In this document: positions 5,868 through 60,859 of the stretch, piece after piece
How the letters are laid out: each line of letters starts with the position of its first letter
Position numbering within the stretch: position 1 is the first letter of the stretch
Assembly (NCBI RefSeq): GCF_023546765.1
Contig: NZ_CP097484.1
Location: 499,501 to 563,500 of the forward strand
Length of the DNA: 64,000 bases
Origin: Methylobacterium tardum
GTDB taxonomy: Bacteria; Pseudomonadota; Alphaproteobacteria; Rhizobiales; Beijerinckiaceae
Reading direction: 5' to 3'
Made by a program: the position numbers and the translations under genes
The notes under the pieces: generated by a model
Databases searched by the model: none
The model's input: only the letters and a program-made list of their open reading frames with translations
What the model was told of the DNA's origin: nothing

Positions 5868-6136
5868 ATGCCCCGCCGTGTTTATTATCGGATCAGCGAC
5901 AGAGCGGACGGCCGCTTCGACGCCGTCGTGACGATCTCGAGCCGGACACAGTGGTCCGCCGCGACGGCTTCGAATCTCTCGCCGAACTCGAGGAGTGGAT
6001 CGAAGGCCTGCGCGTTCTGATGGCGGCGCTCGGCGCGCCGGTGGCGCAGGCGGATGGGATCGAGCCGGCATCTCAGCCGGATACGCAGCCGCAGGGGCCG
6101 ACATCCGCTGGGCGATTGCGCACGGCGCGGCAGTAG
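5868..6136 (+). CDS. Small hypothetical protein, frame broken near 5934
   Basis: An ATG at 5868 opens MPRRVYYRISDRADGRFDAVV and then runs off frame. From about 5936 another frame continues LEPDTVVRRDGFESLAELEEW and on to a stop at 6136. Together they read as one 89-residue protein whose two halves fit if one base is missing around 5934-5936. I do not recognise the family. Without the repair only a 61-residue fragment from a GTG at 5951 would be called. The function is unknown, and the reconstruction is inference from protein-like composition of both halves. Confidence 0.5.
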
Positions 6137-6156
6137 GATCTGCGGCGCAGTTCCGA

Positions 6157-6345
6157 TCAACCGTTTCTGACCGGCAAATCAGGCGCGCGGTCGACCGGCG
6201 CGCCGTCATAGCCCTCAAGCCAGGCCGTGCGCGCCGCCGAATGCGCCGGATAGGGGCAGGCGTCCTTCGGTCGGCCCTGGGCCCGCGCGCGGGCGCCTTC
6301 CGTGATCGGATCCGCCGGCGGGTGGTGGAGCGACGTCTGGCTCAT
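6157..6345 (-). CDS. Rmf/CrpP-like small protein
   Basis: A 62-residue protein containing GARARAQGRPKDACPYP and then AWLEGYDGA. This is the signature of the ribosome modulation factor/CrpP group: a Gly/Ala-rich turn, a CPY motif, and a W-L-x-G-W/Y motif. E. coli Rmf dimerises 70S ribosomes in stationary phase. Whether this alphaproteobacterial relative does so is not known. It lies 30 bases downstream of prmA on the same strand, so it may be co-transcribed with that ribosomal protein methyltransferase. A second family member is at 38493-38708. Confidence 0.7.
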   Translation of the reverse strand: MSQTSLHHPPADPITEGARARAQGRPKDACPYPAHSAARTAWLEGYDGAPVDRAPDLPVRNG

Positions 6346-6375
6346 GCCAGGAAAACGCGGCGGCCTGTCTCCGGT

Positions 6376-7296
6376 TCAGCGCCGCGGGCGTCGGGCCGCA
6401 CCGCCCCGCATCAGGACGAGGGCGACCCAGCCCTCGATCAGGCCGCGGCGTACGAGCGAGAAGCCCTGAGCCCGGTAGGCTGAGAGCACGCCGGACACGT
6501 CGCGCTCGATCAGGCCCGACAGGACGAGGACGCCTTCCGGGGCGACCACGCCCGCCAGGGTCGGGGCAAGCAGCCGCAGGGGCCGCGCCAGGATGTTGGC
6601 GAAGACCAGGTCGAAGTGCCGCGGCCGGTCCGCGAGGTGATGGCGCACCCCCGGCCCCTGGTAGAGCTTGAGATAGGGGCCGAGGCCGTTGGCCCGGGCG
6701 TTCTCGCGCGCGGTGCGCACCGCCTCGGCGTCGAGATCGCCCGCCACCACCGGCTGCCGCAAGGCCTTGGCGGCGGCAAAGGCGAGGATGCCGGTGCCCG
6801 TGCCGACGTCCAAGACGTGGGCCGGACGCCGCCGCTTCAGCTCGGAGACCAGAGCCCGGAGGCAGCCCAGCGTCGTCCCGTGATGGCCCGTGCCGAAGGC
6901 CAGGGCCGCCTCGATCTCGATGGGCAGGTCGTTCGCCCGTACCGTGTCGCGATCGTGCGAGCCGTGGACGACGAAGCGCCCGGCGCGGACGGGTTTCAGC
7001 CCCTCCAGCGAGGCGCGGACCCAATCCTGCTGCGCGATCGTGCGGAATTCGGCCGCGTCGGCGGCATCGCCGATCACCGGCCGGATCAGGGCACGGACGT
7101 AATCCTCGTCGGGTTCGTCGGCGAAGTAGGCTTCGAGCCGCCACGTGCGTCCGTCCTCATCCTCGAAGGCCGCCACTGCGGTCTCGGTCGGGTCGAACAT
7201 CTCGCCCAGCAGATCGGTCATGGCCCGGGCCGAGCGTTCGTCGGTCAGCAGGCGCAGGACGTGGGACGGGCGGTGGGGCGGCAAGCCTTCGAGCAT
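6376..7296 (-). CDS. prmA: Ribosomal protein L11 methyltransferase PrmA
   Basis: SAM-dependent enzyme that trimethylates ribosomal protein L11. The 306-residue protein has an N-terminal substrate-recognition domain and a Rossmann methyltransferase core: FGTGHHGTTLGCL, the SAM-binding motif VLDVGTGTGILAFAAAK, and FANILARPLRLLAP, the PrmA N-I-L-A motif. The start at 7296 (MLEGLPPHRP) fits the usual length; upstream in-frame ATGs at 7329 and 7422 would add a non-conserved leader. No clear ribosome-binding site decides it. A small Rmf-like gene follows closely. Confidence 0.88.
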   Translation of the reverse strand: MLEGLPPHRPSHVLRLLTDERSARAMTDLLGEMFDPTETAVAAFEDEDGRTWRLEAYFADEPDEDYVRALIRPVIGDAADAAEFRTIAQQDWVRASLEGLKPVRAGRFVVHGSHDRDTVRANDLPIEIEAALAFGTGHHGTTLGCLRALVSELKRRRPAHVLDVGTGTGILAFAAAKALRQPVVAGDLDAEAVRTARENARANGLGPYLKLYQGPGVRHHLADRPRHFDLVFANILARPLRLLAPTLAGVVAPEGVLVLSGLIERDVSGVLSAYRAQGFSLVRRGLIEGWVALVLMRGGAARRPRR

Positions 7297-7568
7297 GGTT
7301 CTGGGCTGTAACGCCGGGACGCGCCACATCCCAGAGGCGGACGCGAAAAAATCCGGCGGCGGCCTGACACACCCCTTGCCCCAGGGCACGACCGCTTGTG
7401 GCCAGCCAGACACAGCCTGCAATACTTGTGAGTTCGCGCACCTAAATCAGTGTCCGGAGCCAATCGGTGTGCTTAAACAGTTCCGGCTCTCCCAAAGCCA
7501 GACCCTCAACTCAGGCGCGCCGATTTTCGCGACCCGGCGCGCCAGTTTTGCCAGATGACACGACGCCC

Positions 7569-58559: not shown

Positions 58560-58582
58560 GGGCCCTCAACGGGTGTGTGCAT

Positions 58583-58693
58583 CCTCCCCCCCCTTGCGGG
58601 GAGGGGCAGGGGTGGGGGTGGTGCCGGATAAAGTGCGGCGCTGCCTTCTGCTCCACCCCCATCTCCGGCTCCTTCCCGCGAGGGGGAGGAGAG
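58583..58693 (+). repeat. MITE-like repeat copy 1, inside the suf operon
   Basis: About 110 bases beginning CCTCCCCCCCCTTGCGGGGA and ending GAGGGGGAGGAGAG; the ends are inverted repeats. It matches the copy at 60882-60990 in reverse orientation at roughly four of five positions by eye. It lies between sufB and sufC and could form a large hairpin in the transcript. Confidence 0.7.
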
Positions 58694-58782
58694 CGCGTCG
58701 CGCTTCGTCACGCCAGGGTGCGTGAGCAGCGAGGCCTCGGGGGCAGGGGACAATCAGCGAATTCGAACAGGACTACCAAGAC

Positions 58783-59535
58783 ATGCTGGAAATCAAGAAC
58801 CTCGTCGTGCAGATCGAGGACAACCGCATCCTGAACGGCCTGAACCTGACCGTGAACGACGGCGAGGTCGCGGCGATCATGGGGCCGAACGGCTCGGGCA
58901 AGTCGACCCTGTCGTACGTCATCGCCGGCAAGGAGGACTATGAAGTCCTCGACGGCGAGATCCTGCTCGACGGGCAGAACGTGCTGGAGATGGCCGCCGA
59001 CGAGCGCGCCGCCGCCGGCGTGTTCCTGGCGTTCCAGTACCCGCTGGAGATCCCCGGCGTCGGCACCATGACCTTCCTAAAGGCCTGCCTGAATGCGCAG
59101 CGCAAGACGCGCGGCGAGGCCGAGCTGTCGACCCCCGACTTCATCCGGGCGGTGAACGGCGCGGCCGACAAGCTCGAGATCAACAAGGAGATGCTCAAGC
59201 GCGCCCTCAACGTCGGTTTCTCCGGCGGCGAGAAGAAGCGCATGGAGATCCTCCAAATGGCGCTGCTGCAGCCGAAGTTCTGCGTGCTCGACGAGACCGA
59301 TTCCGGCCTCGACATCGACGCCCTGCGCATCGTCTCCGAGGGCGTGAATGCGCTCCGCGACCAGGGCCGCTCGTTCCTCGTCATCACCCACTACCAGCGG
59401 CTGCTCAACCACATCGTGCCCGACACCGTGCACGTCATGTCGAAGGGGCAGATCGTGAAGACCGGCGGCAAGGAGCTCGCCCTCGAGCTCGAGGCCTCCG
59501 GCTACGCCGAGTACCGCACCAGCGAGGCCGCCTGA
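58783..59535 (+). CDS. sufC: Fe-S cluster assembly ATPase SufC
   Basis: 250-residue ABC-type ATPase that drives the SufBCD scaffold; cytosolic, not a transporter. Walker A is [20 protein letters not shown], the Q-loop [14 protein letters not shown], the signature [20 protein letters not shown], Walker [18 protein letters not shown] and the switch His [17 protein letters not shown]. Intact frame. sufD starts 3 bases after the stop region. Confidence 0.96.
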
Positions 59536-59538
59536 ACC

Positions 59539-60859
59539 ATGGCCGACGTCACCAACCTCCGCTCCCGCCGAGGCCGGCCTGTCGAAGCTGTTCGAGTCGG
59601 CCCGCCAGAGCTTCGCCAGCGACGCGACGATCGCCCGCGAGGAGGCGTTCCGCTTCTTCGAGGCGACCGGCCTGCCGAGCCGCCGGGTCGAGGCGTTCAA
59701 GTATACGGACCTGCGCGCCGCCATCACCGAGGCGGCCCCCCCGGCCGAGGCGCCGAGCCTTGAGGCCGCCAAGGCCGCCGTGGCGCAGGCCACCGGCTTC
59801 GGCGGGATCGAGGCCGCGCGCCTGACCTTCGTGAACGGCCATCTCGTCCGCGAGCTGTCCGACCTCGACAGCCTGCCGGACGGCGTCCGCGTCGTGCCGC
59901 TCAACGAGGCGCTGACCCAGGGCGACACCGCCCTGAAGCAGCTCGCTCCGGTGCCCCAGGCGCGCGAGAACCCGGTCTACCAGCTGAACACCGCCTTCCT
60001 GGCGGACGGCGCAGTCATCGCGGTCGCCCCCGGCGCGAAGCCGGTCCGGCCGGTCCATCTCCGCTTCGTCGGCTCGGGCGACGCGCCGTTCTCGACGGCC
60101 ACGCGCGTCCTCGTGCAACTCGGCGAAGGAGCGGAATTCGCCCTTCTGGAGAGCCATGAAGGTCCGGACGGCCTCACCTGTCAGCCGAACGACGCCCTCG
60201 ACGTGGTGGTCGGCCCGCGGGCCGTCTTCCGGCATACCCGCCTCAACAAGGAGGGCGACGCCACGATCGCGCTCTCGACCCTGTCGTTGAAGGTCGAGGC
60301 CGAGGGTCAGGTCGAGACCGTGAACCTCGTGACCGGGGCGGTGCTGTCGCGCCACCAGATCTACGTCCACGTCGCCGGCGACGACACCAACGTCGTGGTG
60401 AACGGTGCGGCGATGCTGCGGAACGGCCAGCTCGCCGATTCGACGCTGCTCGCCGACCACGCCGCGGTCGGCGGCGTCGGCCGCGAGCAGTTCAAGTGGA
60501 TCATCGACGGCGACGCCACGGGCGTGTTCCAGGGCAAGATCATCGTCCGCCAGGTCGCCCAGAAGACCGACGGCAAGATGAAGTCCGACTGCCTCCTCCT
60601 CACCGACGAGGGGCAGATGATGAACAAGCCGGAGCTGGAGATCTTCGCCGACGACGTTGCGTGCGGCCACGGGGCCACCTGCGGCGCACCGGACCCGGAC
60701 CTGCTGTTCTACCTGATGGCCCGCGGCCTGCCGCGTCCCGTCGCGGAGAGCCTGCTGGTCCAGGCCTTCGTGGGCGAGGCTGTCGAGTCCGTCACGCACG
60801 AGGGCGCCCGCGCGGCGCTGATCGGCGAGATCGAGGCCTGGCTGAGGGCGCGGGGCTAG
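59539..60859 (+). CDS. sufD: Fe-S cluster assembly subunit SufD (frame broken at 59561-59568)
   Basis: Partner of SufB in the scaffold. The ATG at 59539 opens MADVTNLR, after which the frame is wrong. Removing one base around 59561-59568 (GCTCCCG) gives PAEAGLSKLFESARQSFASD and EEAFRFFEATGLPSRRVEAF-KYTDLRAA, the usual SufD N-terminus, and continues in frame to 60859. Later pieces are HQIYVHVAGDDTNVVVNGAA, FQGKIIVRQVAQKTDGKM and EIFADDVACGHGATCGAPDP, the conserved SufD core. Repaired length is 439. Without repair an annotator would start at 59780 and lose about 80 residues. Confidence 0.92.

What the first reader, a model, noticed from the sequence alone, without database searches (positions are those of the whole stretch)
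5868..60859. Eleven genes broken by single-base indels, most at short G/C runs
In each of these genes two frames carry the two halves of one recognisable protein, and adding or removing exactly one base restores a normal length divisible by three: small ORF 5868, modC, M20 amidohydrolase, FemAB-like GNAT, GDPD, DUF2157, hydrolase fusion, GMC oxidoreductase, metZ, suf cysteine desulfurase, sufD. Nine look like one base missing and two (amidohydrolase, sufD) like one extra. Eleven in 64 kb, including core genes, points to sequencing or assembly error rather than pseudogenes.
Basis: partly seen in the sequence, partly recalled or inferred. Interest (0 to 1): 0.7.

Follow-up and report, generated by a model that had tools for sequence, protein, structure and literature searches.

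The report
Sequencing errors breaking Methylobacterium genes
Eleven apparently broken genes in this stretch of a Methylobacterium genome are almost certainly reading errors of the sequencing method, because close relatives carry the same genes intact and the same kind of break also hits genes that a cell cannot live without.

Summary
All eleven reported frame breaks exist, and the relatives compared are unbroken at those places. Four or five of eleven, not most, lie in G/C runs of four or more. The organism is a Methylobacterium. The breaks go on outside the window: of intact proteins of two relatives, 26 of 372 (G010) and 17 of 252 (G002) are split here, against 0 of 251 and 0 of 238 between those relatives. 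The only glyS lies in three frames and the only accA in two, so real pseudogenes are very unlikely. Contexts are not random: of 32 one-base losses, 9 lie in runs of four or more and 6 at CCWGG; of 10 gains, 5 lie at CGTCGA. Homopolymer plus CCWGG (Dcm-type methylation) errors are a published nanopore signature, and this genome has a C5-cytosine methyltransferase that both comparators lack. Best reading: residual long-read, probably nanopore, base-calling errors, partly at methylated motifs. An ordinary artefact; the methylation part is unproven without reads.

The parts
5868..6136 (+). small ORF of unknown function, frame break in its first third
   Evidence: 11 of 11 relatives aligned differ from the window there; no Pfam hit for the 61-aa piece 5951-6133
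10713..11815 (+). modC, molybdate ABC transporter ATPase, broken near 11.1 kb
   Evidence: ABC_tran and TOBE in two frames; best NCBIfam match of the first piece TIGR02142 modC, below cut-off because partial; intact 367 aa in G010
13106..14434 (-). M20 amidohydrolase/peptidase, broken near its C-terminal end (13.2 kb)
   Evidence: Peptidase_M20 and M20_dimer; intact 386 aa in G010; site class CGTCGA
14028..15635 (-). FemAB-like GNAT protein; only its C-terminal tail runs out of frame (14.4 kb)
   Evidence: FemAB_like profile matched 2-369 of 369, so the domain is complete; alignment with G010 and 11 relatives
16165..16919 (-). glycerophosphodiester phosphodiesterase (GDPD), broken near 16.4 kb
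   Evidence: GDPD; intact 250 aa in G010; site class CCWGG
27617..28953 (+). DUF2157 membrane protein, broken near 27.9 kb
   Evidence: PF09925 in the first piece; 4 of 4 relatives aligned differ in length from the window there; G010 lacks this stretch
29721..31282 (-). GMC oxidoreductase, broken near 30.8 kb
   Evidence: GMC_oxred_N and _C in one piece, no Pfam hit in the other piece; intact in G010 and G002
31276..32699 (-). alpha/beta hydrolase fused to a Gluconate_2-dh3 domain, broken near 31.4 kb
   Evidence: PF12697 and PF13618; intact in G010 and G002
53104..54662 (-). metZ-like PLP enzyme (homoserine-ester sulfhydrylase type), broken near 53.4 kb
   Evidence: Cys_Met_Meta_PP in two frames; NCBIfam best PRK05994 and TIGR01326, below cut-off on the piece; intact in G010 and G002
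55802..57021 (+). NifS/IscS-like cysteine desulfurase at the head of the suf cluster, broken near 56.2 kb
   Evidence: Aminotran_5 in two frames; intact 389 aa in G002; G002 and G010 agree
59539..60859 (+). sufD, broken about nine codons after its start
   Evidence: SUFBD_core; TIGR01981, slightly below cut-off; G010, G002, L043 and L044 all differ from the window there

Best explanation
The breaks are base-calling/consensus errors in the assembly, not mutations in the cell. They occur in the sampled part of the chromosome at roughly one per nine kilobases of coding DNA (42 one-base clusters against 387 kb of called G010 coding sequence, not all of it aligned). Their contexts (shortened homopolymers, a base lost at CCWGG, a base gained at CGTCGA) fit a nanopore assembly without enough polishing, in which the base-caller misreads modified DNA as well as homopolymers. 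Shown: the breaks, intactness in relatives, breakage of single-copy essential genes, enriched contexts. Inferred: that the platform was nanopore; that CCWGG is methylated in this strain; that CGTCGA sites are modified or otherwise hard to read. The confidence is for sequence error; for the nanopore and methylation part I would say about 0.7.
For: tblastn of intact proteins against blocks of the other genomes: broken in the window's genome 26 of 372 (G010 queries) and 17 of 252 (G002 queries); between the relatives 0 of 251 and 0 of 238; the window genome's own called segments against the relatives 0 of 402 and 0 of 261. DNA alignment: 45 uncompensated frame-changing clusters inside intact G010 genes in 464 kb, 8 in the window; G002 makes 20 new in the window's genome, 3 shared with G002, 2 unclear, 20 not covered. 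Only glyS in three frames, only accA in two; ccrM, hemH, pnp, fabF and the C-terminal tip of secA also broken. Contexts: of 32 losses 9 in runs of 4 or more, 9 in runs of 3, 6 at CCWGG, 8 other; of 10 gains 5 at CGTCGA, 2 in runs of 3, 3 other; binomial against background 6.9e-6 (runs of 4 or more), 1.1e-3 (CCWGG), 6.9e-7 (CGTCGA); GCCWGGC hit at 6 of 119 sites. Published nanopore signature: CCAGG/CCTGG and homopolymers (PMC6591954, passages); [quoted passage not shown] C5-cytosine methyltransferase in the window's genome, no PF00145 match in G010, G002 or G007. Homology-free measure: 57 unexplained frame switches in 729 kb of coding DNA here against 33 in 1,195 kb of G010, G002 and G007.
Against: No reads or assembly record were available, so the platform is inferred. 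The CCWGG and CGTCGA classes were chosen after seeing the contexts. 8 of 32 losses and 3 of 10 gains fit no class. 3 of the 25 clusters that G002 could judge are shared with G002, so not every difference from G010 is an error here. 18 indels lie inside stretches called coding in this genome; 7 of these have no called G010 gene at the place, of which two are breaks here by other evidence (sufD; one by a G002 query) and five are unresolved and could be G010's. The methylase's target site is unknown; six other genomes of the 17 besides this one that were searched also have PF00145 matches; only 6 of 1,874 CCWGG sites in the aligned DNA are coding breaks, so most were read correctly. In 400 kb not used to find the +1 motif the check was weak: TCGTCCGA within 60 bases of 3 of 28 unexplained switches and 1 of 77 explained ones; the shorter CGTCCGA 3 of 28 and 2 of 77; CGTCCGAA 0 of 28 and 0 of 77. 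The homology-free measure is not clean: one G010 stretch reaches 4.4 per 100 kb against 7.1 to 9.2 here.
Confidence: 0.94

Rival explanations
1. Real pseudogenes: the strain is losing these genes by small indels.
For: Some broken genes look dispensable (GDPD, DUF2157, hydrolase), and 3 of 25 clusters that G002 could judge are shared with G002.
Against: The only glyS and the only accA are broken, as are ccrM, hemH and pnp and sufD; the relatives show 0 of 251 and 0 of 238; break sites are enriched for runs and motifs.
Confidence: 0.03
2. A mismatch-repair mutator or a mixed culture whose consensus carries real homopolymer slippage.
For: 18 of 32 losses are in runs of three or more.
Against: Slippage does not explain losses at CCWGG or gains at CGTCGA; essential genes are hit. 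mutS and mutL were not examined.
Confidence: 0.02
3. Programmed ribosomal frameshifting at many genes.
For: In most of these genes the coding signal goes on in the new frame.
Against: Orthologues in G010 and G002 need no shift; both directions occur, in different contexts; I saw no shared slippery site in the contexts printed.
Confidence: 0.005
4. The same kind of artefact from another platform (PacBio CLR, Ion Torrent or 454), homopolymer errors only, the motif classes being chance.
For: Runs of three or more account for 20 of 42 one-base events; 11 fit no class. Indels are also more prevalent in PacBio RS II assemblies (PMC8495745, passages).
Against: CCWGG and CGTCGA enrichment. A 6.9 Mb assembly in 2 contigs suggests long reads.
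Confidence: 0.2

Closest known systems
Oxford Nanopore consensus errors at Dcm motifs and homopolymers (Wick et al. 2019, PMC6591954; passages read)
   Same: Errors concentrated in homopolymers and in CCAGG/CCTGG
   Different: The Dcm errors there amounted to about 0.4% of the reference, far more than here; Dcm is described there for Enterobacteriaceae, here the host is a Methylobacterium; a CGTCGA insertion class is not mentioned in the passages I saw
Gene-fragmenting errors in long-read assemblies (Kastor, PMC12007338; search listing and start of abstract only)
   Same: Long-read errors that mimic pseudogenes, found by comparison with a curated set
   Different: Not compared further; the paper was not read

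Membership tests
nanopore consensus errors | indels that break genes which are intact in close relatives | tested here: met
   26 of 372 and 17 of 252 against 0 of 251 and 0 of 238
nanopore consensus errors | homopolymers enriched, mostly shortened | tested here: met
   9 of 32 losses in runs of 4 or more, background 4.4%; 32 losses against 10 gains
nanopore consensus errors | errors enriched at CCWGG | tested here: met
   6 of 32 losses, background 3.7%, p 1.1e-3, class chosen post hoc; GCCWGGC 6 of 119
nanopore consensus errors | CCWGG methylated, with a matching methyltransferase | tested here: inconclusive
   C5-MTase (TIGR00675) present, none found in G010, G002, G007, but matches in six other genomes searched; target site unknown; methylation itself not testable here
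nanopore consensus errors | reads disagree with the consensus at the sites | not testable with these tools
   no reads held
pseudogenes (genome decay) | essential single-copy genes are spared | tested here: not met
   the only glyS and the only accA are broken
programmed frameshifting | shift needed in orthologues too | tested here: not met
   orthologues in G010 and G002 lie in one frame
mutator strain | defective mutS or mutL | not tested
   no search made

The most novel reading that the evidence does not exclude
The errors are a readable footprint of the strain's DNA modifications: a CCWGG-type 5-methylcytosine system in a Methylobacterium, and a second, uncatalogued modification at TCGTCGA-like sites that makes the base-caller add a base. 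Errors in poorly polished assemblies could then be used to infer methylation motifs without raw signal.
Probability: 0.25. Interest if true: 0.4.

Novelty: not a real feature. Interest (0 to 1): 0.17.

Why it matters
Gene calls, pseudogene counts and gene-loss claims from this assembly are unreliable: about 7% of the genes tested in the sampled 464 kb are split (26 of 372 and 17 of 252), although the listed completeness is 99.91%. If the methylation reading holds, the error pattern also carries information on the strain's methylome.

Tried and rejected
Gene-finder frame switches alone: many are ordinary stop/start overlaps with a counterpart in G010, so they were not counted as breaks. A plain list of 86 indels against G010 over the window mixes intergenic divergence with breaks; only uncompensated clusters inside intact G010 genes were counted. 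The upstream 400 kb is largely not colinear with the G010 block fetched (aligned total 450 kb, 475 kb with partly different settings), so it served only for the homology-free measure and the weak motif check. A search of the methylase's longer piece against solved structures gave only family-level matches (HaeIII, HhaI, DNMT1), so its target site stayed open. Two searches for adenine methyltransferase families showed more PF01555 matches in this genome (6, some of them pieces of one gene) than in G010 (2), G002 (1) or G007 (4), but named no enzyme for CGTCGA. Paper searches: nanopore, frameshift, pseudogenes, indel errors and methylation motif together found 0 papers; Methylobacterium, nanopore and methylome listed 4, none read.
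Full report
What the window is. The window is C1:499501-563500 of a 6.94 Mb genome in two contigs, listed completeness 99.91%. The SufD query hits Methylobacterium records best, Methylobacterium sp. UNC378MF at 98% and M. longum at 94% protein identity, so the organism is a Methylobacterium, species not named. The nearest unnamed relatives are G010 (92-93% DNA identity over most of the window, colinear except for about 27.3-29.6 kb) and G002 (about 86% over its aligned blocks; in the block fetched it covers the window only from about 22.9 kb on).

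The eleven breaks. Seven genes are one base shorter than the comparison gene (modC, GDPD, DUF2157, hydrolase fusion, GMC oxidoreductase, metZ-like, cysteine desulfurase); the M20 gene is one longer; the small ORF is two longer than 11 of 11 relatives; sufD is two shorter than 4 of 4; the FemAB-like tail is fourteen longer than in G010, in a stretch that varies among 11 relatives. DUF2157 lies in a stretch that G010 lacks; of 59 genomes searched, five besides this one gave long matches, four of them over the whole stretch (G041, G032, G070, G036), and all 4 of these differ in length from the window at the site. Domain assignments are from Pfam and NCBIfam. For modC, M20 and GDPD the direction rests on G010 alone plus its open frame; G002 does not cover them in the block used.

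Test outside the window. With 464 kb of this genome (the window and the 400 kb after it) against 480 kb each of G010 and G002, intact proteins found their counterpart split over two or more frames in 26 of 372 cases (G010 queries) and 17 of 252 (G002 queries). The same test gave 0 of 251 (G002 to G010), 0 of 238 (G010 to G002), and 0 of 402 and 0 of 261 (this genome to G010 and to G002). Left out before the count: called segments under 240 bases or with a stop inside, best hits under 70% identity, joined hits covering under 70% of the query. At DNA level 45 uncompensated frame-changing clusters lie inside intact G010 genes, 8 of them in the window; G002 makes 20 new in this genome, 3 shared with G002, 2 unclear, 20 uncovered; clusters within 12 bases of a gene end or that add up to a multiple of three were left out. 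The other three window breaks (small ORF, DUF2157, sufD) are not in this count. Looked at from the other side, 18 frame-changing clusters lie inside stretches called coding in this genome; 11 are in the list above and 7 have no called G010 gene at the place: sufD, one that a G002 query shows to be broken here, and five unresolved, two of them in the window. A gene-finder measure without homology gives 28, 5 and 24 unexplained frame switches in three stretches of this genome (57 in 729 kb coding) against 5, 1, 13, 12 and 2 in five stretches of G010, G002 and G007 (33 in 1,195 kb). That measure has false positives: one G010 stretch reaches 4.4 per 100 kb, against 7.1 to 9.2 here.

Why not pseudogenes. 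Broken genes outside the window, named by NCBIfam on the intact G010 protein, include ccrM (below that family's cut-off), hemH, secA (only the last 40 or so residues), pnp, glyS beta, accA, fabF, puhE, bchI and bchO, and a protein with a weak match to SMC. A whole-genome search finds one glyS, lying in three frames, and one accA, in two frames; the two other accA matches are 31% identical over part of the protein. That glycyl-tRNA synthetase and acetyl-CoA carboxylase are indispensable is established knowledge, not tested here.

What kind of error. Of the 45 clusters, 42 are one-base events (the others are +14, -13 and -17); the 42 still hold the few that G002 shares or leaves unclear. Of 32 losses, 9 lie in runs of 4 or more, 9 in runs of 3, 6 at CCWGG, 8 elsewhere; of 10 gains, 5 lie at CGTCGA, 2 in runs of 3, 3 elsewhere. 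Against the share of such positions in the aligned DNA the binomial probabilities are 6.9e-6 (runs of 4 or more), 1.1e-3 (CCWGG) and 6.9e-7 (CGTCGA), with the caveat that the motif classes were picked after reading the contexts. Over all 129 clean one-base differences, coding or not, GCCWGGC is hit by a loss at 6 of 119 sites and TCGTCGA by a gain at 5 of 314. In 400 kb not used for finding the motif, TCGTCCGA stood within 60 bases of 3 of 28 unexplained switches and 1 of 77 explained ones, the shorter CGTCCGA 3 of 28 and 2 of 77, CGTCCGAA 0 and 0: weak support. Wick et al. 2019 (PMC6591954, passages) report that with then-current nanopore base-callers about 70% of consensus errors in their K. 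pneumoniae genome were in CCAGG/CCTGG Dcm motifs, with homopolymers as another class. This genome has a C5-cytosine methyltransferase, whose profile matches lie in two frames. Of the 17 other genomes searched for PF00145, 11 gave no match (G002, G006, G007, G008, G010, G013, G015, G016, G022, G041, G065) and 6 did (G001, G003, G004, G005, G014, G021). So the methylase fits the reading but does not prove it, and its target site is not known.

Conclusion. The refinement is that such breaks continue well outside the window, hit essential genes, and fall partly at methylation-type motifs rather than mostly at G/C runs.

Noticed in passing
window ~58584-58712 and ~60871-60988: An intergenic repeat of roughly 110 bases that matches on both strands (palindromic, REP- or MITE-like), with many copies in this genome and its relatives.
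   Followed up: no
window 27268-29646: A DUF2157 plus GDYXXLXY gene pair that G010 lacks at this place and that few of the 59 genus genomes searched match strongly (G041, G032, G070, G036, part in G052): perhaps gained or lost as a unit.
   Followed up: partly
L187 (G000:C1:2178399-2179774): C5-cytosine methyltransferase gene whose two profile matches lie in different frames, so this gene may itself carry an error.
   Followed up: partly
G000:C1:577815-578485: The CcrM-type adenine methyltransferase is split over two frames, while G010, G002 and G007 have a 400-residue open frame.
   Followed up: partly
window 14341-14380: The FemAB-like C-terminal tail next to the M20 start varies in length among 11 relatives aligned; the window is longer there than all 11.
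   Followed up: partly
G000:C1:99501-499500: Upstream of the window, colinearity with the G010 block fetched mostly ends (475 kb of 864 kb aligned in all).
   Followed up: no
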